From positions 1 to 64,000 of IMG/VR virus record IMGVR_UViG_3300010403_000025: a stretch of DNA of 64,000 bases; one strand, written 5' to 3'. A model generated the notes under the pieces. It saw only the letters and a list, made by a program, of their open reading frames with translations. It was not told the origin of the DNA and did not search any database. The stretch is from a virus. Made by a program: the position numbers and the translations under genes. Of the stretch, positions 2,045 to 24,323 are shown one piece after another (the stretch's first letter is position 1; each line of letters opens with the position of its first letter).

Positions 2045-4108
2045 ATGCCGATACCACAACCGAATGCCGACGAAAGCCAAGATGAGTTCATGTCGCGCTG
2101 CATGTCGGACCAGAACATGAAAAACGAATTTCCCGAAAACGATACGCGCGCGCGGGTCTGCCAGAAGCAGTGGGACGGGGATGCAACGGAATCACGGCAG
2201 CTCTGGGCAACGTTTGAAGCCAGGTCGGTCGATGATGAGAAGCGGATCATTGAAGGGATAGCAACGACGTCGGAAGAGGCCCTGGACGGGTTGATTCTCG
2301 AGACGCGCGGTATTGAATTTAAGTTACCCATCCCCTTTCTGTACAACCACGACACCTCGCATCCGCTCGGCAACGTCATTTCAGCCGACGTGAAGAACGA
2401 TCGGATCAACGTTCGCATTCAGGTCGCACCACAAGGAACGTCGGAATTTATTGACGAGAAGTGGCGAATGATCAAGGCCGGCATTGTCCGTGGGTTGTCG
2501 ATTAAATTCCGAATGCTCAAAGCTCAGGCGAATCGTGTGTTGAAAAGCCTGTGGCTGGAGCTCTCCGCCGTAGCTTTACCCGCCGATTTAAACGCATCGA
2601 TTATTTCCGTCCGTAGCGCAGATGAAGCGATCCTTCGCGCGATAGCGAATAAAGGAACTCGCGATTCTGTCGTTCGGCTTAACCGCAACCCATCCGGCGC
2701 TCCGGTACAAGTCAGAAATAAAGGAACCGCTATGAAGACCATAGCTGAACAGATTACCGAGTTAGAAGGGACTGTACTGGTCAATGAGAAGCGCATCGAC
2801 GAACTCATTGCGGCTGCGGATGGACGCAGTTTTGAAGAGCACGAAGATGCGGAGATCAAAGACAAGCAAGCTGAGAACAAGCGCTGGCTAGATAAGATCA
2901 CGCTGCTCAAGTCGCGCAATGCAACGCTGCTGCAGAAAGCCGCAGAAGTCACGCCGGAAAACACCGACACTCCCGCAAAGGCGGCGGCAACACGAGGTGG
3001 CCCTCAGGAGCAGGCACGCGTGATCAGCGTTCGATCGAATCTTCCGAAGGGAACGACGTTCTCGCGGTGGGTCATGGCGACGGTAGAAGCGAAGAACGAC
3101 ATGCACCGCGCTGCCGATCTGTCGAAAACCTACTGGCCCGACCAGCCGGAACTGGAGCAGATTTTCCGCACCAATGTCGGATCGCGTGCTCAGGTGCTTG
3201 TCGGAACAACGACCCATGCGACATGGGCATCCCCGTTGATTCCTGCAGCGCAGACGATGTTCAGTGAGTTTTTGGAATTGTTGCGGCCCCTGTCGATCAT
3301 CGGACGCATCCCGAATCTCACGCGCGTTCCGCCGAATGTGGTCGTTCCCATACAGACCGGTGGCGGTACGGGGAACTGGGTTGGGGAAACTCAGGCGAAA
3401 CCGGTCAGCGCGTTGGCGTTCACGTCGGCGACTCTACGCTGGGCGAAAGCCGTCGTCATGACGGTATTAAGCGAGGAACTGATTCGCTATTCCAGTCCAA
3501 GCGCCGAAGCGGTCGTGCGATCCTCAATTGCGAAAGACATTGCACAGTATCTCGATACACAGTTCATCTCAACGACGATTGAAAGCGTGAACGTTTCGCC
3601 GGCGGGCCTCTTGTGGAATGCGCCGACTTCAGCCGCGACAGGCGTCACTGCGGCAACGTTCTTGACCGACTTCAAGACGGCGCTCGCGACATTCATTGCG
3701 GCCAATTACGATTTGTCGCAGTTGGTGATTTTGATGTCGAGCACGGTCGCGTTGAACGTCAGCACATTGAAAGATTCACTCGGCAACTTCCTCTATCCGA
3801 CATTGGGACTCACCGGTGGAACCGTTCTGAATATCCCCGTGGTCGTAAGTGAAGCGGTCGGCAACAAGATCATCTTCATGAACGCGAGCGAAATTCTGTT
3901 GGCGGATGATGGCGGGATCATGATCGACGCGAGCAATCAGGCATCGATTCTGATGGACGACGCCCCGAACGCATCTCCCGCAACCACGTCGTTGGTGTCG
4001 CTGTATCAACGGAATCTCGTAGCAATAAAATGTGAGCAGTACATAACCTGGAAGAAGGCGCGCTCGACCAGTGTGTACTACCTCTCCAATGCGAGCTACA
4101 CAGGCTAA
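2045..4108 (+). CDS. Prohead protease-major capsid protein fusion
   Basis: One reading frame joins the HK97-type prohead maturation protease to the HK97-fold major capsid protein. From ATG 2045 it is 687 residues; a TTG at 2033 lies inside the terminator T tract and is unlikely as the start. The N-terminal part (about 1-190) has a Cys-containing head like SRCMSDQ, then the protease with its likely catalytic His in FLYNHD (H102) and Ser in VRGLSIKF (S152). From about residue 230 comes a helical scaffold (delta-like) segment, then the capsid domain. An internal ATG at 2732 preceded by AAGGAA could give capsid alone. Both proteins are essential for head assembly. Confidence 0.88.
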   Translation: MPIPQPNADESQDEFMSRCMSDQNMKNEFPENDTRARVCQKQWDGDATESRQLWATFEARSVDDEKRIIEGIATTSEEALDGLILETRGIEFKLPIPFLYNHDTSHPLGNVISADVKNDRINVRIQVAPQGTSEFIDEKWRMIKAGIVRGLSIKFRMLKAQANRVLKSLWLELSAVALPADLNASIISVRSADEAILRAIANKGTRDSVVRLNRNPSGAPVQVRNKGTAMKTIAEQITELEGTVLVNEKRIDELIAAADGRSFEEHEDAEIKDKQAENKRWLDKITLLKSRNATLLQKAAEVTPENTDTPAKAAATRGGPQEQARVISVRSNLPKGTTFSRWVMATVEAKNDMHRAADLSKTYWPDQPELEQIFRTNVGSRAQVLVGTTTHATWASPLIPAAQTMFSEFLELLRPLSIIGRIPNLTRVPPNVVVPIQTGGGTGNWVGETQAKPVSALAFTSATLRWAKAVVMTVLSEELIRYSSPSAEAVVRSSIAKDIAQYLDTQFISTTIESVNVSPAGLLWNAPTSAATGVTAATFLTDFKTALATFIAANYDLSQLVILMSSTVALNVSTLKDSLGNFLYPTLGLTGGTVLNIPVVVSEAVGNKIIFMNASEILLADDGGIMIDASNQASILMDDAPNASPATTSLVSLYQRNLVAIKCEQYITWKKARSTSVYYLSNASYTG
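2721..4108 (+). other. Possible nested start for free major capsid protein
   Basis: AAGGAA (2721-2726) lies five bases before an in-frame ATG (2732). Translation from it would make a 458-residue protein starting MKTIAEQITELEG, a helical delta-domain-like head followed by the capsid fold, without the protease. This would supply the excess of capsid over protease that assembly needs. It is inferred from the site alone. Confidence 0.5.
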
Positions 4109-4113
4109 CTGAG

Positions 4114-4365
4114 TTAGTCTTCGCCACGGGCCCGTTTCTCTCCCTCTCTTTTCGGGCCCGTTTTTATTTTCTTTGATGGTGGAATGATGCCCCATCTGTC
4201 TTTTGCTTCACGAGCGCGCTGTTCTCGTTTACGTTCAGGTTCTTTCTCGCATTCGGTGCAGATAGCGGCCTCGCGTGTCGGCTCTAGCGGAATCTTATGC
4301 TTCGGGCAATAGAAATTGCGGAAACACCACCAGCGAAACCGGAGCCGATCAATGAAAGTTTTCAT
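4114..4365 (-). CDS. Small basic zinc-finger-like protein
   Basis: This 83-residue, strongly basic protein has a CxxH...CxxC pair (CPKH at about 20 and CTEC at about 35), a likely zinc knuckle, and a long Lys/Arg/Glu tail. Function unknown; nucleic-acid binding is plausible from charge. It is the last gene of the antisense island; its ATG overlaps the stop of the preceding gene by ATGA (4362-4365). Its 3' end runs to the shared terminator. Confidence 0.6.
   Translation of the reverse strand: MKTFIDRLRFRWWCFRNFYCPKHKIPLEPTREAAICTECEKEPERKREQRAREAKDRWGIIPPSKKIKTGPKREGEKRARGED
4127..4160. terminator. Terminator between capsid gene and antisense island
   Basis: CGGGCCCG occurs at 4127-4134 and again at 4153-4160. 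It is self-complementary, so the two copies pair with an 18-base loop, followed by TTTTTATTTTC on the plus strand. The hairpin lies between the convergent capsid gene and the antisense gene whose stop is at 4114, so it could act in both directions. Confidence 0.7.
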
Positions 4366-4502
4366 TTCTTTTTGATGTGCCCTTTCCAGCGCGCCTTTGC
4401 GCCTTTCTTGGCTATGGCTTTCTTTTCTTCTTTGGTTAATCGGGCGGCTCTGGCTTCACCGCCCTTGCGGCCGAGTTGTTGTGCAGCTTTATTCTTTGGC
4501 AT
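4362..4502 (-). CDS. 46-residue Lys/Arg/Ala-rich protein
   Basis: This short gene encodes MPKNKAAQQLGRKGGEARAA and continues with a basic helix ending in KKK. Small proteins with a GRKGGxARAxxLTxEE pattern are widespread in phages and plasmids, but I know of no defined function. It overlaps the next gene by ATGA and is the third gene of the antisense island. Confidence 0.65.
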   Translation of the reverse strand: MPKNKAAQQLGRKGGEARAARLTKEEKKAIAKKGAKARWKGHIKKK

Positions 4503-4504
4503 AG

Positions 4505-4681
4505 TCAAAAGACTTCGCCTTCTTCTGCAAAATCAATCCAACCACGATCATTGGTCTGGTCGTCGGTCAATGTGAGATTTCCTACGATGTTGGGGTACAC
4601 GCGCCATTCTAACGGACATTGCTCTAATGCGGCTTTTAGTTGAGCCACTGTTAGGTATTTGATGTTGTTCTCGTCGCGCAT
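4505..4681 (-). CDS. 58-residue acidic protein, unknown
   Basis: The gene encodes 58 residues beginning MRDENNIKYLTVAQLKAALE and ending in DFAEEGEVF. The LTVAQLxxALxxCPxxxxVY pattern recalls small phage proteins of unknown function. It lies seven bases downstream of the first gene of the island and just before the 46-residue gene, so it is read as part of the same transcript. Confidence 0.6.
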   Translation of the reverse strand: MRDENNIKYLTVAQLKAALEQCPLEWRVYPNIVGNLTLTDDQTNDRGWIDFAEEGEVF

Positions 4682-4688
4682 ATTCTTC

Positions 4689-4964
4689 TTAGCCGTTAAA
4701 TTGAAAGTCGAAGCTGGCCGGATTGGTCATGCGTTCAATGTCAATCTCGCCGCCGCGTACCATCGTCAGATGGTTAACTTTCGCAATCGTACGAATCGTC
4801 CGCTGCTGCTCATCCGTAAAGCGAGCATCAAACGTCGGTGCGTTAACTTGAATGTATTTGCTACCGCAGGACTCAATCATGCGAACGCGAGCATTGATGC
4901 CAGCAGCCTTAATGCGTCCGCGAATGTGAGCAGCCATTTCTTTCTGCGTCATTGTGTTACTCAT
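4689..4964 (-). CDS. First gene of the antisense island, unknown function
   Basis: From ATG 4964 it encodes 91 residues with an ordered alpha/beta pattern (MTQKEMAAHIRGRIKAAGIN). I do not recognise a characterised family. The start is chosen because a perfectly spaced promoter ends seven bases before this ATG; there is no Shine-Dalgarno sequence, so the mRNA may be leaderless, or translation may start at the second Met five codons on. Confidence 0.65.
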   Translation of the reverse strand: MSNTMTQKEMAAHIRGRIKAAGINARVRMIESCGSKYIQVNAPTFDARFTDEQQRTIRTIAKVNHLTMVRGGEIDIERMTNPASFDFQFNG

Positions 4965-5091
4965 GAGTACAATATTACTGCTTAGCGCTAAGCATGTCAA
5001 TAGAAATCAGTCGGCCTTTCAAGCGCTATTTGAAAAGCTGTTTGGACCACCTAAGCCGTGGCCTGCACCGCCGCCGCCTAAGTCAGTATGA
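4963..5091 (+). CDS. Possible 42-residue protein before the portal operon
   Basis: An open frame runs from ATG 4963 to a TGA that overlaps the next gene's ATG (ATGA). The last 23 residues (FEKLFGPPKPWPAPPPP and on) look like genuine protein and the coupling is typical of this genome. However, the first third overlaps the antisense promoter and start codon. It may be a remnant or a real small gene with a different start. Confidence 0.3.
   Translation: MSTILLLSAKHVNRNQSAFQALFEKLFGPPKPWPAPPPPKSV
4972..5000 (-). promoter_or_regulatory. Consensus promoter with operator-like palindrome in the spacer
   Basis: On the minus strand TTGACA (4995-5000) and TAATAT (4972-4977) are separated by exactly 17 bases. 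That spacer holds a perfect 14-bp palindrome, GCTTAGCGCTAAGC (4980-4993). A repressor bound there would block RNA polymerase. The -10 box lies seven bases before the ATG. This is the best sigma70-type promoter seen in the window. Confidence 0.8.
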
Positions 5092-5309
5092 AACTCGTCA
5101 AAGTCATTGCCTTGAAAGATCACGAGTGGGCCAAGGTCGCACGCCATACAGGTGAAGTCTACGAAGCCGACACCGAAGACATTCGGTTTGATGCACTGTT
5201 GGTGACGGGATTAGCGAAGCGTGTGACAGAGCCGACGCCAGCAGTGGATGAACGTCATGTCAGTCTGCCGGGGCGTTACAAGCGTCGAGATATGCGGCCG
5301 GTTAAATGA
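5088..5309 (+). CDS. Small protein preceding portal
   Basis: This 73-residue basic protein (MKLVKVIALKDHEWAKVARH) is predicted to be mainly beta, with a charged tail. Small proteins of this sort occur next to portal genes and may be head accessory proteins, but I do not recognise the family. It overlaps the portal gene by ATGA. Confidence 0.6.
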   Translation: MKLVKVIALKDHEWAKVARHTGEVYEADTEDIRFDALLVTGLAKRVTEPTPAVDERHVSLPGRYKRRDMRPVK

Positions 5310-6706
5310 ACATCCTCGGCTTTGAAATCGTCCGCAAGCGCGCGGCGCAAAACCTTCAATCGGTCAACTCGAACTCGTGGTGGAATTGGTGGGGCCCGAT
5401 TCGCGAACCGTTCACCGGAGCGTGGCAGAGGAACATCACGATTGATCCGCAACAAACGCTACTAGCGTTCAGCGCGCTCTATGCGTGCGTTACTGGGATT
5501 GCGAGCGACATTGCGAAGATGCGGATTAAACTCGATGAGAACTCCGGTGGAATCTGGGAAGAAATCACCGAACCTCACGGCAATTCGAAGGCATCGGAAG
5601 TCATCCCGGTCCTAAACAAACCGAATCACTATCAAAACCGCATTCAATTTTTAACGCAGTGGATTGTTTCAAAACTACTGAGCGGGAACACCTACGTCCT
5701 CAAAGAACGTAATCGTGAAAGAGTTGTCGTCGCGTTGTATGTGCTCGACCCGCTGCGCGTGAAGGTACTCGTCGCTGAAGATGGAAGCGTCTGGTACGAA
5801 CTGAGTCCGGATTATCTGTCCGACGTTCAAGACTCGATTACCGTTCCCGCTTCCGAAATCATCCACGATCGGATGTGCCCGCTGTGGCATCCTCTCGTCG
5901 GAGTCTCGCCGATTTACGCCTGTGGAACATCCGTCACGATGGGGAATCGGATCCAGTCGAGTTCGACGAACTTCTATCAAAACGCCGCACGGCCAAGCGG
6001 CATTCTGACAGCACCGGGAATGATTACGGATGAAGCGGCAGCACGGGTGAAGGCACGTTTTGAAGCGGGCTATACAGGCGTGAATGCCGGAAAGATTGCG
6101 GTCGTTGGGGATGGACTGAAGTTTGAACAGATGACCCTGACGGCCGAGGCATCGCAGACGATTCAGCAATTGCAATGGACGGTCTCGGATGTCGCTCGTG
6201 CGTTTCATTATCCCGAGTGGAAACTCGGTGGAGCGTTGCCTCCGTATTCAAATGGGCCAGAAGCCTTGACGCTCATGTACTACACCGACTGCCTCCAGCC
6301 TTTACTCGAATGCTTAGAGCTTTGCCTAGATGAAGGATTCGCGCTGCCAGAAGGCATCGGGACCGAAATGGATCTCGACAATCTGTTGCGCATGGATACC
6401 GCCGGCTTGTACGCGGCTAATAATCTCGGCGTTGGTGGTGGATGGCTCGCACCGAATGAAGCGCGGTTCCGCGCCAATTACTCCGATGTTAAGGGCGGTG
6501 AATCGCCCATGGTCCAGCAGCAGAACTACAGCCTCGCGGCCCTTGCCAAACGTGATGCGCAAGAGGATCCATTCGCATCGAAGACTCCTCTGCCTCAATT
6601 AGCGGCAGCACCGCCGCCTGAAGAGAAAACACCAACCCCAACCCGAGCCATGATGGAGCACGCCATGGAATCCTTCGAAGCCCAGTTACGAGAAGCGCTC
6701 GTCTGA
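5306..6706 (+). CDS. Portal protein (HK97 family)
   Basis: The portal forms the dodecameric ring at one capsid vertex through which DNA enters and to which the neck attaches. The 466-residue length fits the HK97 class. Typical family stretches are visible: LLAFSALYACVTGIASDIAK near 50, HDRMCPLWHPLVGVSPIYAC around 190, and the C-terminal helical region with PYSNGPEALTLMYYTDCLQP. The C-terminal 60 residues are Pro/Ala-rich and probably disordered. It overlaps both neighbours (ATGA upstream, TGATG downstream). Confidence 0.92.
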   Translation: MNILGFEIVRKRAAQNLQSVNSNSWWNWWGPIREPFTGAWQRNITIDPQQTLLAFSALYACVTGIASDIAKMRIKLDENSGGIWEEITEPHGNSKASEVIPVLNKPNHYQNRIQFLTQWIVSKLLSGNTYVLKERNRERVVVALYVLDPLRVKVLVAEDGSVWYELSPDYLSDVQDSITVPASEIIHDRMCPLWHPLVGVSPIYACGTSVTMGNRIQSSSTNFYQNAARPSGILTAPGMITDEAAARVKARFEAGYTGVNAGKIAVVGDGLKFEQMTLTAEASQTIQQLQWTVSDVARAFHYPEWKLGGALPPYSNGPEALTLMYYTDCLQPLLECLELCLDEGFALPEGIGTEMDLDNLLRMDTAGLYAANNLGVGGGWLAPNEARFRANYSDVKGGESPMVQQQNYSLAALAKRDAQEDPFASKTPLPQLAAAPPPEEKTPTPTRAMMEHAMESFEAQLREALV

Positions 6707-19027: not shown

Positions 19028-20302
19028 TTGATCTACGCTCAAGCGCATCCCGTAGCACTGCGAGAGATGATTGAAGAACGTCTCGCTCAAGCACCGGCAC
19101 CAACCTATCCCTACCCTCTCGGCTATGTCACTTGGACGGCGGATGAAATCTTAGCGGCGCTGGATTGTCTCTGCGATCGCATGACGACGATGTGGACGAA
19201 GGTCGAGGACTTCGAGAGGCAATTCGGCGACTATCTTGGATCTCAACGGGCCGTGATGGTGAACTCCGGATCGAGCGCGGACCTCGTCATGATGCTGGTT
19301 TCACGCGAACTGGGAATGCTCCAGCGCGGCGATGAGATCCTGATGCCGGCCGTTACTTGGCCGACACAGGCATGGGCGGCAATCGAGGCGGGATTCTCGG
19401 TGAGGTTCGTTGACGTCGAAGTCGCCACGCTGAATACCTCGCCGGCGATTCTCGAAGCGGCGATTACACCAAAGACGAAAGCGATCTTCCTCGTCCACCT
19501 GATGGGCAATCCCTGCGAGATGGATGCGATTCAAGAACTGGCCGAGCGCCACAAGCTATTGATCTTTGAGGACTGCTGCGAAGCCCTCGGTGCGGAGTTC
19601 GATGGTCACAAGGTCGGAACGTTCGGAGTAGCAAGCGCCTTCTCATTCTTCGCGTCTCATCACATTTCGACGATGGAAGGCGGCATGATCACGACAGAGA
19701 GCGCGGAGTTTGCGGAAGGTTGCCGATTGATGCGCGCTCATGGTTGGGCTCGCGATATGCGCTATCGGCTGAATGATGTGGAGTGCCTGACGCGGTATGG
19801 TTGCGTGGATGATCCGCATTATTTATTCCTTGCGATGGGTTTTAACTTCCGGCCTACCGAACTGCAAGGCGCTATGGGGCAGGTGCAGCTCGAGAAACTC
19901 GACACCATGAACCGATGGCGCGAGACGAATGCGACGGCAATTGCGAATCAGTTTCGAACAACGAACGAGCACACCGTAGAAGCCTTGATGCCGACGAGCT
20001 ACAAAGCCACGCCTGCGTGGTTTGGTCTGCCATTCGTGATTAAAGACAAGATGCCGTACACGCGAAGCGATGCGGCGCGATATTTGAAACAGTACGGAGT
20101 CGATACCCGGCCGATCGTGGGCGGAAACCTTATGAGACATCCAGCGTTTTGGAAGTATGCCGCGATGGCCGCAGATGCCCTGCCCGGTGCGAACGCGATT
20201 CACGATCGCGGCTTCTATGTGGGCCTACCACCCTTTGAAGCATCGATGAATGGATTAGTGGGACTGCTCAGCAATATGGATTCTTATCTACGATGCGCTT
20301 AA
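19028..20302 (+). CDS. DegT-family sugar enzyme with His at the PLP-lysine position (ColD/RfbH-like 3-dehydratase)
   Basis: The 424-residue fold-type I protein has the family's order of motifs: VNSGSSADLVMMLVS, PAVTWPTQAW, EDCCEALGAEFDG and FNFRPTELQGAMG. The loop that normally carries the PLP-binding lysine reads SFFASHHISTMEGG, with H211 in that place. ColD and RfbH, which use PMP to remove the 3-hydroxyl of 4-keto-6-deoxy sugars, also carry His there. A 3-deoxysugar pathway is therefore suggested. The start TTG is uncertain (next ATG at 19067). Confidence 0.8.
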   Translation: MIYAQAHPVALREMIEERLAQAPAPTYPYPLGYVTWTADEILAALDCLCDRMTTMWTKVEDFERQFGDYLGSQRAVMVNSGSSADLVMMLVSRELGMLQRGDEILMPAVTWPTQAWAAIEAGFSVRFVDVEVATLNTSPAILEAAITPKTKAIFLVHLMGNPCEMDAIQELAERHKLLIFEDCCEALGAEFDGHKVGTFGVASAFSFFASHHISTMEGGMITTESAEFAEGCRLMRAHGWARDMRYRLNDVECLTRYGCVDDPHYLFLAMGFNFRPTELQGAMGQVQLEKLDTMNRWRETNATAIANQFRTTNEHTVEALMPTSYKATPAWFGLPFVIKDKMPYTRSDAARYLKQYGVDTRPIVGGNLMRHPAFWKYAAMAADALPGANAIHDRGFYVGLPPFEASMNGLVGLLSNMDSYLRCA

Positions 20303-20764
20303 TGACGGTGATTCATGAGGCAACGCTGATTCGATGTCATCGGCCAGCTTACGGAGTGCATTCATAATGCTAGATAAGCCATCGCTAAACGAACCGTCCT
20401 CTCGACACTGCGCGATGTCGTCTTCGAGCGCAGCGCGTAGGTTGAACGAGTACTCTGGATCTCGATCGTCAATGTCGCCAAGTGCAATACTGAGATAGAT
20501 TGTGAGCGGATCAACTGGCTCGGTCTTTTTCCGTCCGTCGCCATCGCCCCATATGGCTGGCCAGTCTATGCGCGTATTCTCATCCTTTAGGGCTAATACG
20601 AGCGCCTCTTCCGCCGCGCGGGTAATAAGTTGTTTTAGTCCACCTATGGCTTCATCTAGCGAGGTCAAGGCCCAGTCAGTTAGGTCCGGCCTGTTGTATT
20701 CGTGGGTAAGGTTTATCACGCCTCGCGGCGGTTGGACATCTTTGTTAGATTTCTTTTTAGCCAT
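20288..20764 (-). CDS. 158-residue protein of unknown function, antisense
   Basis: The product is acidic and helical, with a Lys-rich head (MAKKKSNKDVQPPRGVINLT). GGAGG lies ten bases before the ATG, so unlike the mini-genes it has a normal leader. The IS element has inserted into its leader at 20802-20809. A TTACAA/TATATT promoter in the element's left end now points at it. Confidence 0.6.
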   Translation of the reverse strand: MAKKKSNKDVQPPRGVINLTHEYNRPDLTDWALTSLDEAIGGLKQLITRAAEEALVLALKDENTRIDWPAIWGDGDGRKKTEPVDPLTIYLSIALGDIDDRDPEYSFNLRAALEDDIAQCREDGSFSDGLSSIMNALRKLADDIESALPHESPSLSAS

Positions 20765-20801
20765 GAGCGGGATTCCTCCGTTTGTGGTCAGAACCCGTCA
20801 A

Positions 20802-20809
20802 GGAGTTAG
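20802..20809. repeat. Target-site duplication, left copy
   Basis: GGAGTTAG directly precedes the left terminal inverted repeat and is repeated exactly after the right one at 22937-22944. Eight bases is the duplication size of IS1595-family elements. Confidence 0.85.
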
Positions 20810-20815
20810 GGCAAT

Positions 20816-20844
20816 AATATACTTGACTGACATACCCTTTGTAA
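20816..20844 (-). promoter_or_regulatory. Outward-facing promoter in the left IS end
   Basis: On the minus strand TTACAA (20839-20844) and TATATT (20816-20821) have a 17-base spacer and point out of the element towards the 158-residue gene at 20764, whose own GGAGG remains upstream of its ATG. Confidence 0.5.
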
Positions 20845-20852
20845 CATATAGT
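20823..20852 (+). promoter_or_regulatory. Transposase promoter, leaderless arrangement
   Basis: TTGACT (20823-20828) and TATAGT (20847-20852) are 18 bases apart. The -10 box ends seven bases before the transposase ATG at 20860 and no Shine-Dalgarno sequence is present. The -35 hexamer lies inside the inverted repeat. Confidence 0.65.
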
Positions 20853-20859
20853 TCTTTAT

Positions 20860-21849
20860 ATGGATAAGAACTCTTTGCCGCAGACCTTACAAGAAGCCGT
20901 CATTTACTTCGCGGACTATCAGCATTGCCACGACTTCATGATATCGCTTCGTTGGCCTGATGGCGTCGTGAAGTGCCCGCATTGCGGCTCTGACAACGTG
21001 AAGTATTTGCCAAATGCTCGCGTGTTCAAATGCTTCGAAAAACATCCGCTCGCGAAATTCTCATTGAAGGTCGGAACGATTTTTGAAGACTCACCAATCA
21101 GCCTGGATAAATGGATTATCGCAATGTGGCTTGTGGTGAACTGCAAAAACGGCGTCTCGTCCTACGAGATTGCGCGCGATTTGAAAGTCACACAGAAAAC
21201 CGCATGGTTCATGGACCATCGCATTCGATTTGCGCTTCACGCTGGATCATTCGAAAAGATGGGCGGCGAAGGAACGGAAGTCGAAGCCGATGAAACGTAT
21301 ATCGGCGGACTCGCACGCAACATGCACAAAGATGTTAGGGCCCGCAAGATCCAGGGGCGCACTGGCTATGCTGGTAAGACTGCCGTGTTCGGTTTATTGG
21401 AACGCGGCAAGAATGGAAAGTCTCGCGTCAAAGCTCAGGTTCTACCGAATCAGTGGAACACCAAAGAAGCCCGCGCCATCATTCGCGAAACGGTTGAGCA
21501 AGGAACAAACCTCTACACCGACGAACACGGCGCATATCACGCGATTGGTTCCGAAGGTTTCAACCATGCGTTCGTTCGGCACGCGGAGTCTTACGTTGAT
21601 GGCGCGGTTCACACCAATGGAATTGAAAACTTCTGGTCACTCTTGAAGCGCGGCATCAAGGGCACATACGTTAGCGTGGAGCCGTTTCATATGTTTCGCT
21701 ATCTGGACGAACAGGCTTTCCGCTTCAACGAGCGCTTTGGAAACGACCAAGACAGGTTCTTGGCTGCAATGCAAGGTGCAGTAGACAAGCGACTCACATA
21801 TAAATTGCTCACGGGAAAACTGGAGGATGCTAGTTCGGTATCTAACTAA
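20860..21849 (+). CDS. IS1595-family transposase
   Basis: The 329-residue DDE-type transposase has an N-terminal zinc ribbon (VKCPHCGSDN, about residues 40-50), then a helix-turn-helix (NGVSSYEIARDLKVTQKTAW). The catalytic core follows, with acidic residues in VEADETYIGG, LYTDEHGAYH and TNGIENFWSLLKRG. The HTNGIENFW and KRGIKGTYVSVEPFH stretches are hallmarks of the ISXO2-like/IS1595 group. Length is normal and the frame is intact, so it may be active. A terminator-like hairpin follows. Confidence 0.93.
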   Translation: MDKNSLPQTLQEAVIYFADYQHCHDFMISLRWPDGVVKCPHCGSDNVKYLPNARVFKCFEKHPLAKFSLKVGTIFEDSPISLDKWIIAMWLVVNCKNGVSSYEIARDLKVTQKTAWFMDHRIRFALHAGSFEKMGGEGTEVEADETYIGGLARNMHKDVRARKIQGRTGYAGKTAVFGLLERGKNGKSRVKAQVLPNQWNTKEARAIIRETVEQGTNLYTDEHGAYHAIGSEGFNHAFVRHAESYVDGAVHTNGIENFWSLLKRGIKGTYVSVEPFHMFRYLDEQAFRFNERFGNDQDRFLAAMQGAVDKRLTYKLLTGKLEDASSVSN

Positions 21850-21879
21850 AACTGAGAAGAGGCGACAGAAACGAGGAAA

Positions 21880-21912
21880 GCGGAAGTCTTAACGCGGCTT
21901 CCGCTTCGTTTG
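21880..21912 (+). terminator. Terminator-like hairpin after transposase
   Basis: GCGGAAG (21880-21886) pairs with CTTCCGC (21898-21904), followed by TTCGTTTG. It overlaps the end of the convergent 46-residue gene. The T tract is broken, so activity is uncertain. Confidence 0.45.
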
Positions 21913-22029
21913 TTTCTTTCGTTTCGGTAGTGCCGATTTTGGCACAGTCAGAACGGCTTTCATGGCATCGCGCAAACGCTTGAATGCTTCCGGGCCTTCG
22001 ATCATTTCACGATGTTTCGTGCTACCCAT
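21889..22029 (-). CDS. 46-residue basic protein in the IS element
   Basis: The product starts MGSTKHREMIEGPEAFKRLR and ends in a Lys/Arg tail. The (I/F)EGPEAxxRF..AM..(I/V)L.VPK pattern is a widespread bacterial small-protein family of unknown role. It has a good Shine-Dalgarno sequence (AGGAAAGGA) just before the ATG. As a passenger gene it may be an antitoxin-like or regulatory partner; this is a guess. Confidence 0.65.
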   Translation of the reverse strand: MGSTKHREMIEGPEAFKRLRDAMKAVLTVPKSALPKRKKQTKRKPR

Positions 22030-22063
22030 GCGCTTCCTTTCCTAATGGTTCATAGTAGCACGG

Positions 22064-22885
22064 TCACGGAAATAGGCCGCTACTGACGAACTGTGGCAAT
22101 AAATGAACTCGGATATAGGAATGAATTCCCGCAAGGGTTTTGACAACCAATTCATCTTTGGCCACGCCACTGGCGAACGCAATACTCATCAGTGGTCTGA
22201 TCAACATTGCCATTTCAGGGTGATCGATCCAAAAGGAAAATGGCCGGAGTTCGGCAATTACTGTGTCTGTCGTTATCATCCGACCGCCGAAGTACGTGTT
22301 CTGTTGCTGCAAGAATGGGTGAAGCTCGGGTACATCGAACGTGTCAACGGTAGCGCCGCTGGTATGCAAGACCCTGTGCTTATCCGCATTGGACAATTCG
22401 GCCAAAAGCCCAAGGTGTGTTTTGAGTGGGAATGGGTCGTGGTGCGGCTGCAAACTCTTGATCAGTGTCTTGGCCGCTGGGTCCATTCCATCGATTCTCC
22501 GTTCTTGACTCTTGGGGAATCCGTCTTTCGTGTTGGGGTCGCTCTTGACGACGATCGGGAATTGGGAGCTCTTTGCGATCTCATCGCTAATTGCCGACCC
22601 GATCTTTCGATGATGGGCTTCAATCAGTGCGAAGTTAATGTGATCGAGAGAGCCACGCAGATTATGAAGTATATCCCCGATGATCAACGAGAACGGGTCG
22701 TCAGGTGGTTGGACTCCAATGCTGATTCTGTATTCGATATAGTGACTGGGGTCTTGAATTGGCTGGAGTCGAAACGTCGCTTTACTTTCGGATTGGACCC
22801 AATTGGTGATCTCCGACCGCAATTGCTTCAAGTGATACTGCGCCCTGTCGAGTTTAAGAATAAAGCTGTGATCTGGGGAGGCCAC
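22064..22885 (-). CDS. Passenger gene of IS element: GDxLHNLRxxLDH protein
   Basis: The 273-residue product begins with GTG 22885, about 50 bases inside the right end. It contains IIGDILHNLRGSLDHINFAL (about residues 85-105) and LLAELSNADKHR near 170. These motifs mark a common but uncharacterised family. RGSLDH fits the Rx4H spacing of HEPN ribonucleases, so an RNase or abortive-infection role can be imagined but not shown. A -35-like TTGGCT in the inverted repeat points at this gene. Confidence 0.7.
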   Translation of the reverse strand: MASPDHSFILKLDRAQYHLKQLRSEITNWVQSESKATFRLQPIQDPSHYIEYRISIGVQPPDDPFSLIIGDILHNLRGSLDHINFALIEAHHRKIGSAISDEIAKSSQFPIVVKSDPNTKDGFPKSQERRIDGMDPAAKTLIKSLQPHHDPFPLKTHLGLLAELSNADKHRVLHTSGATVDTFDVPELHPFLQQQNTYFGGRMITTDTVIAELRPFSFWIDHPEMAMLIRPLMSIAFASGVAKDELVVKTLAGIHSYIRVHLLPQFVSSGLFP

Positions 22886-22936
22886 GACCGTCTATTCTTA
22901 CGTACTCTGGGGCTGTCAGCCAAGTATGTTATTGCC

Positions 22937-22944
22937 GGAGTTAG
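22937..22944. repeat. Target-site duplication, right copy
   Basis: GGAGTTAG is identical to 20802-20809 and directly follows the right terminal repeat. Confidence 0.85.
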
Positions 22945-22974
22945 CAGCTCCTTAGCGGGTTCGCTTATTTTAGC

Positions 22975-23658
22975 ATGAAACTTGCTGTCGCCACCTGCTG
23001 GGCCTATCGGGATGCGCTTTTACCGTTCTTCTATCTGCTCGATAAGTTTTGGCCGACGCATCCGGAAGTGACGATCGTAACGGATGAATGGTGCGGTGAT
23101 AGCTACGGTGCCGACGTGTATCAAGGTGGACGAAAGACATGGTGTCAGATTCTCGCGGGATATGCGAAGGAAGCGGAAGAGACGATACTCCTCCTTCAGG
23201 ACGATTTCTTCCTGACAGTGCCAGTTCAGAACGACCTCGTGATTCACGGACTGAAGGAAATGTACACGTATGACGCGGGTTGCGTTCGACTCTATCCGTG
23301 TCCCGGTGGAGTGGAACGTTACGGCGATCCGTACTTTCAAGTCGTCCCGAATGGCGAACGGTACAGGGTAAGTTGTCAGGCCAGTCTATGGAAGCCGAGC
23401 TATCTCTATAAGATTGTGAGCAAATGCCACGACCACGGAGAACCGAGCGACTTTGAAACCAACGGCACCGTGTATAGCTATCAACTACCGGAGCCGGTCC
23501 TAGCATTCAAGGCCGATATACGACCGTTGCCGCTGGACTATCTGTGCAGCGCCATTTCGAGAGGACTATGGGAACCGGCTGCTATTGAGCTGTGTGAGAA
23601 GTATCACATCCCGATGGATCGATCGATGCGTGAGGTCGCAACGCCGTGCTTAACGTAA
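22975..23658 (+). CDS. Glycosyltransferase-like protein with DDF motif (paralogue 3)
   Basis: The 227-residue protein (MKLAVATCWAYRDALLPFFY) has the acidic pair in TILLLQDDFFLTVP (D76-D77). DKFWPTHPEVTIVTDEW matches the corresponding segment of the genes at 14289 and 17833. The N-terminal fold looks like GT-A. It is the first gene after the IS element and overlaps the next gene by 13 bases. Confidence 0.65.
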   Translation: MKLAVATCWAYRDALLPFFYLLDKFWPTHPEVTIVTDEWCGDSYGADVYQGGRKTWCQILAGYAKEAEETILLLQDDFFLTVPVQNDLVIHGLKEMYTYDAGCVRLYPCPGGVERYGDPYFQVVPNGERYRVSCQASLWKPSYLYKIVSKCHDHGEPSDFETNGTVYSYQLPEPVLAFKADIRPLPLDYLCSAISRGLWEPAAIELCEKYHIPMDRSMREVATPCLT

Positions 23659-24323
23659 CGGCGATCATGCCGACGCGCGGAAGGCGCGTCTGGGCGAATC
23701 AAGCCTTGAAGTGTTTTCTCGCGCAGACCTACGAACACAAAGATTTGATCATTCTGGATGACGAGGACAATCCATCCTTTCCAATACCGCCGAAGTATCC
23801 CAACGTGGCGCACATTCTCTTAAAAGAGAGAATGTCGATAGCCGCTAAACGCAACATGGCGGTGCGATTGGCGACGGGTGAAATCATTTGTCATGTCGAT
23901 AGTGACGACTACAGCGCACCGAATAGATTTCAAGACCAAGTCGCGCTCCTCGAAGAACATCACAAATCCGTCACCGGATACCATTCGATGATTTTCCACG
24001 ATGCGGAACGCGGCCTTTGGTATTTCAAAGGCCTTCAGGGGTTTCCGATGGGAACGAGTCTCATGTATCGGAAATTGTTCTGGAGTGGATGTCAATTCGT
24101 ACCGGACCCGATTCATGTGGCGCTCGGTGAATTGAACGTCGGCGAAGACAATATGTTTGCCAGGGCGGCGCGAAACGCTAACGAAGTCATCACGACAGAT
24201 GCAGGCTTCACGATGGTCGCGCGAAGTCATTCGGATAACGTCTCGAAACGCGATGTTCTAAATCGCGAGCATCAAGAGTGGCATCGCTGGACGGGTGGAT
24301 TGCCGACAGGGTTTACGCCGTGA
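23646..24323 (+). CDS. Glycosyltransferase family 2
   Basis: The 225-residue GT-A enzyme has the N-terminal VTAIMPTRGRRVWANQAL and the metal-binding HVDSDDYSAPNRF (D85-D88). The C-terminal part includes GEDNMFARAARNA, the GT2 ED catalytic region. Start is GTG 23646 within the end of the previous gene. It is the last enzyme of the sugar cassette. Confidence 0.85.
   Translation: MLNVTAIMPTRGRRVWANQALKCFLAQTYEHKDLIILDDEDNPSFPIPPKYPNVAHILLKERMSIAAKRNMAVRLATGEIICHVDSDDYSAPNRFQDQVALLEEHHKSVTGYHSMIFHDAERGLWYFKGLQGFPMGTSLMYRKLFWSGCQFVPDPIHVALGELNVGEDNMFARAARNANEVITTDAGFTMVARSHSDNVSKRDVLNREHQEWHRWTGGLPTGFTP

What the first reader, a model, noticed from the sequence alone, without database searches (positions are those of the whole stretch)
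20802..22944. Complete IS1595-type element with an 8-bp target duplication and two passenger genes
28-bp imperfect inverted repeats (24 matches) and exact GGAGTTAG flanks delimit 20810-22936. Besides the transposase it carries a 46-residue and a 273-residue gene, both antisense. Complete IS elements are uncommon in phage genomes, and passenger genes in this family are notable. The identical flanks point to a recent event.
Basis: seen in the sequence. Interest (0 to 1): 0.72.

Follow-up and report, generated by a model that had tools for sequence, protein, structure and literature searches.

The report
Cargo-carrying IS1595 transposon in a phage
A phage genome carries a complete jumping gene that brings two extra genes with it; such extra genes turn out to be the rule in this branch of its family, one of them is a small, previously unnamed partner protein, and the other is a swappable cargo that often looks like an anti-virus defence gene.

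Summary
In detail: a complete IS1595-family element occupies 20810-22936, with 28-bp terminal repeats (24/28) and an exact 8-bp duplication GGAGTTAG. The host record is a tailed phage. A related phage (L042) lacks the element, together with a neighbouring 158-aa antisense gene. The joined flanks form a stem-loop, so the element sits in a hairpin tip.

The interpretation needs correcting. In this transposase lineage, passengers are the rule: all 64 related elements with both ends mapped are 1,978-4,583 bp. The two passengers are different things. The 46-aa ORF belongs to an unnamed small-protein family found inside 56 of the 64 elements and outside none. In 297 Acidobacteriota genomes not chosen by transposase, 24 of 32 of its hits lie within 2.5 kb of an IS1595 transposase. 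The 273-aa ORF is exchangeable cargo, with homologues in six other elements. Cargo of the lineage is rich in defence and toxin-antitoxin families (DUF3800, AIPR/AbiU, methylases, GmrSD), unlike flanking genes. About 20% of insertions hit stem-loops (12/60; shuffles mean 1.8).

So this is a transporter IS of the IS1595 family: transposase, small partner protein and swappable cargo. The partner's function is untested.

The parts
20791..20805 (.). left arm of the stem-loop into which the element inserted (GAACCCGTCAAGGAG); partner 22948-22962
   Evidence: inverted pair I6, 87% complementary; joined empty site folds at -25.8 kcal/mol, z -5.4, 0 of 200 shuffles as stable
20802..20809 (.). left target site duplication GGAGTTAG
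   Evidence: sequence
20810..20837 (.). left terminal inverted repeat (GGCAATAATATACTTGACTGACATACCC)
   Evidence: 24/28 match to right end; same end motif in relatives
20823..20852 (+). promoter-like site for the transposase, -35 TTGACT inside the left terminal repeat, -10 TATAGT
   Evidence: 10/12 consensus; a TIR-borne promoter scoring >=9 in 78% of 64 left ends versus 11% of shuffles. Prediction only
20860..21849 (+). IS1595-family DDE transposase, 329 aa (D144, D221, E256, K263; zinc ribbon)
   Evidence: PF12762 1.5e-38, PF12760 2.6e-8, NF033547 3.8e-50; D144, D221 and E256 invariant in 114 relatives
21878..21906 (.). terminator-like hairpin between the convergent transposase and cargo units
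   Evidence: pattern scan; inverted pair I2 21863-21886/21898-21921. Prediction only
21889..22029 (-). 46-aa basic partner protein of the IS1595 lineage, last gene of the cargo unit
   Evidence: family in 92 of 122 loci; 55 hits inside and 0 outside complete elements; 24 of 32 genome hits within 2.5 kb of an IS1595 transposase; no Pfam or NCBIfam model
22064..22885 (-). 273-aa exchangeable cargo gene (GDxxHNLRSALDH...FPI...LQPY...DKHR family)
   Evidence: homologues in IS1595 elements L003, L044, L085, L138, L139, L146 and in 13 of 396 Acidobacteriota genomes
22909..22936 (.). right terminal inverted repeat
22937..22944 (.). right target site duplication GGAGTTAG
22948..22962 (.). right arm of the interrupted stem-loop (CTCCTTAGCGGGTTC)

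Best explanation
A complete 'transporter IS' (tIS) of the IS1595 family lies at 20810-22936 of a tailed-phage genome. The DDE transposase, probably expressed from a promoter whose -35 box lies in the left terminal repeat, recognises the two ends and inserts with an 8-bp duplication; here it entered the tip of a stem-loop next to a 158-aa antisense gene (shown: ends, duplication, hairpin; inferred: enzymology, promoter). Between the transposase and the right end lies a second, convergent unit read from the right end. It holds a swappable cargo gene (273 aa), followed by a 46-aa basic protein that is a conserved partner of this transposase lineage rather than random cargo (shown: order, conservation, co-occurrence). 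The partner most likely assists or regulates transposition, or tunes the unit in which it comes last; the cargo most likely benefits the cell or phage as a single-gene defence or conflict gene, as other cargo of the lineage appears to (both inferred).
For: Ends and 8-bp duplication; transposase family and catalytic residues; 64 relatives with both ends mapped, all >= 1,978 bp, so all with cargo. Partner family inside 55 complete elements at E<0.01 (56 with the weaker L110), none outside, no hits in reversed sequences; unbiased genome test 24/32 next to IS1595. Similarity of partner follows similarity of transposase (Mantel rho 0.19 against a null sd of 0.047, above all 2000 permutations). Partner is the trailing gene of a co-directional unit in 45 of 56 elements and is fused to the cargo C-terminus in 2 more. 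Cargo is enriched in defence/TA families versus flanking genes (versus 85, 86). The 273-aa cargo recurs with different transposases. Stem-loop targets. Related phage lacks the segment.
Against: No exact empty site was found. Only one copy in the record, so activity is not shown. The 273-aa protein has no family, no solved homologue and a useless structure model (pLDDT 39), so defence is by association only. The partner's Mantel correlation is significant but small, and 8 of 64 elements lack a recognisable partner. Eight of 32 partner hits in genomes lie away from a detected transposase.
Confidence: 0.85

Rival explanations
1. An ordinary IS1595 element that picked up two unrelated passenger genes by chance.
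For: IS1595 elements with passengers are documented (PMC3129680 citing Siguier 2009); cargo does vary between elements.
Against: The 46-aa family is in 56 of 64 complete relatives whatever the cargo, and 24 of 32 genome hits sit beside IS1595 transposases. No cargo-free relative was found among 64.
Confidence: 0.07
2. The 46-aa protein serves the cargo (for example as antitoxin, chaperone or regulator), not transposition: cargo plus partner form a two-gene conflict system moved by the transposase.
For: The partner is usually immediately downstream of, and co-directional with, the cargo (31 of 56) and is fused to the cargo C-terminus in L093 and L121 (and in L021, ends not mapped). L143 has partner and a 273-aa relative side by side with no transposase within 7 kb. 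A small basic gene trailing a larger one resembles some toxin-antitoxin layouts.
Against: The same partner family accompanies many unrelated cargo families (DUF3800, methylase, AIPR, proteases), and in 14 elements it directly follows the transposase instead. Partner similarity follows transposase similarity.
Confidence: 0.25
3. The antisense ORFs are not genes: the element is a transposase plus non-coding filler.
For: The 273-aa ORF starts at GTG without an obvious ribosome-binding site, and a 291-aa ORF overlaps it on the other strand.
Against: Both antisense ORFs have frame-conserved homologues in the same position in elements of other phages and bacteria.
Confidence: 0.03

Closest known systems
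IS1595 family, transporter IS (tIS) elements (Siguier, Gagnevin and Chandler 2009, as cited in PMC3129680)
   Same: DDE IS1595 transposase with zinc ribbon, GGC ends of about 25-28 bp, 8-bp target duplication, passenger genes between transposase and one end
   Different: Cargo seems obligatory in this lineage; a conserved 46-80 aa partner gene accompanies it; cargo is defence-like. I could not read the 2009 paper or ISfinder here, so whether they noted the small gene is unknown, and the subgroup is not assigned
tISCpe8 and MTnSag1 (IS1595-family elements described as mobilizable elements in PMC5704250; tISCpe8 carries lincomycin resistance)
   Same: IS1595-type transposase moving extra genes
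   Different: Those are treated as mobilizable elements; the element here has no mobilization gene recognised
Compact IS1595-family IS (about 0.7-1.3 kb in Ralstonia, PMC7371123)
   Same: same transposase family
   Different: no cargo, roughly half the length
Phage 'moron' cassettes, e.g. gene 32 of Gordonia phages Samba and ZiggyZoo
   Same: homologue of the 273-aa cargo, set against the direction of the tail genes in Samba
   Different: no IS1595 transposase was seen in the retrieved annotation there

Membership tests
IS1595 family | ISXO2/IS1595-type DDE transposase domain | tested here: met
   PF12762 132.7 bits against cut-off 27; NF033547 170.8 against 75
IS1595 family | catalytic D-D-E(N)-K residues conserved | tested here: met
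   D144, D221, E256 invariant and K263 in 111 of 114 relatives
IS1595 family | N-terminal zinc ribbon | tested here: met
   PF12760 34.1 bits against 25.4; three cysteines conserved, the fourth position reads CxxxH in this element
IS1595 family | terminal inverted repeats and 8-bp target duplication | tested here: met
   24/28 repeats, exact GGAGTTAG; 64 relatives alike
IS1595 family | assignment to an ISfinder subgroup (ISPna2, IS1016, ISSod11, ...) | not testable with these tools
   ISfinder sequences not held
transporter IS (tIS) | IS organisation plus genes unrelated to transposition between the ends | tested here: met
   273-aa gene inside the ends, exchangeable between elements
HEPN RNases (considered for the 273-aa protein) | conserved R-x4-6-H catalytic motif | tested here: not met
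   R77 and D81 invariant in the 13-member alignment but the H at 82 is Y, N or L in several members; not filed as HEPN
known anti-phage defence proteins (considered for the 273-aa protein) | match to a PADLOC model | tested here: not met
   0 PADLOC families for the window protein

The most novel reading that the evidence does not exclude
A widespread lineage of IS1595 transposons never travels alone: it always carries a conserved, so far unnamed small basic protein that is a working part of the transposition or cargo-capture machinery, plus one exchangeable defence-type gene, and it prefers to land in hairpins; in phages it acts as a shuttle that loads conflict genes onto viral genomes.
Probability: 0.4. 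Interest if true: 0.7.

Novelty: new variant of a known kind. Interest (0 to 1): 0.52.

Why it matters
Single-gene defence and toxin-antitoxin genes move between bacteria and phages by routes that are mostly unclear. A lineage of small transposons in which cargo appears to be obligatory, defence genes are over-represented and one tiny protein is constant would be a simple general vehicle for such genes, and would give a handle (the small protein, the ends, the hairpin target) for finding more of them. It also shows that a 46-aa ORF that annotation pipelines tend to leave unnamed is a conserved gene.

Tried and rejected
Exact empty site: searching viral contigs with the flanking 158-aa gene found nothing; L042 matches both outer flanks but lacks the 158-aa gene as well. 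The 273-aa gene as a catalytic HEPN protein: the histidine is not conserved. Structure of the 273-aa protein: four-sequence model with pLDDT 39, so no fold search was made. Partner structure: one helix 13-27, pTM 0.37, not informative. Solved structures: none for either family. Non-autonomous copies around cargo homologues lacking a transposase: no convincing terminal repeats found. A + strand 291-aa ORF (22103-22978) was considered and rejected as a shadow frame. Literature search found no description of the small protein or of hairpin targeting in IS1595, but the key 2009 paper is not held, so absence is not proof.

Full report
WHAT IS THERE. The window is the first 64,000 bases of a 66,745-base virus record with tape-measure and minor tail genes. 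Positions 20810-22936 hold a complete IS1595-family element: 28-bp terminal repeats with 24 matches, exact GGAGTTAG on both sides, and a 329-aa transposase with the IS1595 DDE domain and zinc ribbon, its D144, D221 and E256 invariant across 114 relatives. It is the only copy in the record. The strand opposite the transposase carries the 273-aa and then the 46-aa gene, 34 bp apart, read from the right end and meeting the transposase tail to tail at a terminator-like hairpin. GC is 50% in the element and 53.5% in the window.

THE SITE. A phage contig, L042, matches both outer flanks (89% up to 20301, 78% from 22984) and lacks everything between, that is the element and a 158-aa antisense gene with its hairpin. 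So the phage line exists without the element, but this is not an exact empty site. Joining the flanks gives GAACCCGTCAAGGAGTTAGCAGCTCCTTAGCGGGTTC, a strong stem-loop (-25.8 kcal/mol, z -5.4, no shuffle as stable): the element split the tip of a hairpin. This is a preference of the lineage for a minority of its insertions. Without the window, 12 of 60 sites have a stem score of 7 or more, against a mean of 1.8 (maximum 9 in 10,000) when left and right flanks are re-paired among elements, and 4 of 120 in nearby contiguous sequence (Fisher p 4e-4). Examples are L056, L049, L088 and L091. Duplications lean towards palindromes starting C(T/A) and ending (A/T)G; L003 has a 9-bp one (CTCGTAGCC).

RELATIVES. 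Transposase searches gave 40 viral and 80 genome loci, mostly environmental Acidobacteriota, Chloroflexota, Deltaproteobacteria and others. In isolated phages and plasmids only distant relatives exist (about 34-36% and 35-41% identity). Cargo is therefore the rule here, not a curiosity.

THE 46-AA GENE. An iterative profile found its family (consensus EFxxFxxxxxxxLxVPKxEI followed by a basic tail) in 92 of 122 loci. In mapped elements every one of 55 hits is inside and none outside (element share of sequence 35%); reversed sequences give no hit; L110 is a 56th, weaker case. Because those loci were chosen by transposase, I ran an independent test. A profile of the small protein over 297 Acidobacteriota genomes gave 32 hits, 24 of them within 2.5 kb of an IS1595 transposase, although only 64 of the 297 genomes have such a transposase at all. 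The family has no Pfam or NCBIfam model and no solved structure. It usually closes a co-directional unit: after the cargo in 31 elements, after the transposase in 14, fused to the cargo end in L093 and L121 (also in L021, whose ends were not mapped). Its similarity tracks that of the transposase (Mantel rho 0.19, above all 2000 permutations), weakly but significantly. Elements with the same cargo also have somewhat more similar transposases than expected (p 0.009, same call), so cargo exchange is not free of descent.

THE 273-AA GENE. It has no family in Pfam, NCBIfam, PHROGs or PADLOC. Homologues (20-30% identity; G70, R77, D81, F109, P147, K169 and H170 invariant in a 13-member alignment) occur as cargo in L003 (another phage, 68% transposase), L044, L085, L138, L139 and L146, with transposases as little as 32% identical, and in several bacterial loci without a transposase nearby. 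Gene 32 of two Gordonia phages is a homologue, in Samba set against the direction of the tail genes. The HEPN-like R-x4-H reading fails because the histidine varies.

OTHER CARGO. Main cargo ORFs of the lineage match DUF3800 (14), AIPR (3) and AbiU (3), C5 methylases, Panacea and DUF433 antitoxins, GmrSD, Vsr, PIN, RhuM and IrrE; a nine-member group carries an RNxxxH motif like that of HEPN proteins, seen by eye in the members printed. The same number of neighbouring genes outside the elements gave ordinary metabolic families (180 Pfam families) and 51 instead of 266 PADLOC families. PADLOC counts are redundant models, so the contrast is qualitative.

EXPRESSION. The left repeat supplies a -35 box (TTGAC in 57 of 64) with a fitting -10 in 78% against 11% of shuffles; the right end does so in 33% against 4.5%. 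This suggests that the ends drive transposase, and in some elements cargo, after any insertion. These are pattern matches, not measured promoters.

VERDICT. A confirmed, well-delimited transporter IS of the IS1595 family. The element is a new member of a known kind; the constant small partner plus defence-leaning cargo makes the lineage, as far as the held literature shows, a new variant. Shown: anatomy, membership, partner conservation, cargo exchange, hairpin targeting as a statistical tendency. Inferred: partner function, cargo function, promoters, recency.

Noticed in passing
window 20288-20764 (-): A 158-aa antisense gene with its hairpin is absent from the related phage L042 (junction L042 5009/5010) and has no relatives found in viral contigs: a separate small insertion (moron) next to the IS.
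   Followed up: partly
L093:4990-6177, L121:4933-6021, L021:4911-5525: The small partner domain is fused to the C-terminus of a DUF3800-type protein (L093) and of trypsin-like proteins (L121, L021).
   Followed up: partly
L143:3293-4421 (G041:C8): A partner-family ORF and a 273-aa cargo homologue lie back to back with no IS1595 transposase within 7 kb and no terminal repeats found: a possible stranded cassette.
   Followed up: partly
L003 (IMGVR_UViG_3300047440_000490) 3952-6366: A second viral contig carries the closest relative (68% transposase, same three-gene order) with a 9-bp duplication CTCGTAGCC.
   Followed up: yes
L149 (Gordonia phage Samba MN096365, gene 32); ZiggyZoo MW601225 gene 32: Homologue of the 273-aa cargo, in Samba set against the direction of the tail genes of an isolated phage; a testable defence or superinfection candidate.
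   Followed up: no
L057, L064, L074, L077, L078, L088, L094, L109, L119: Nine elements share a cargo of about 280 aa with a C-terminal RNxxxH-type motif (HEPN-like) that has no Pfam match in the two members scanned with a loose threshold.
   Followed up: partly
window 19028-20302 and 22975-24323: The element sits between a DegT/StrS aminotransferase gene and small genes that look like sugar-transfer enzymes, upstream of the tail genes of the phage.
   Followed up: no
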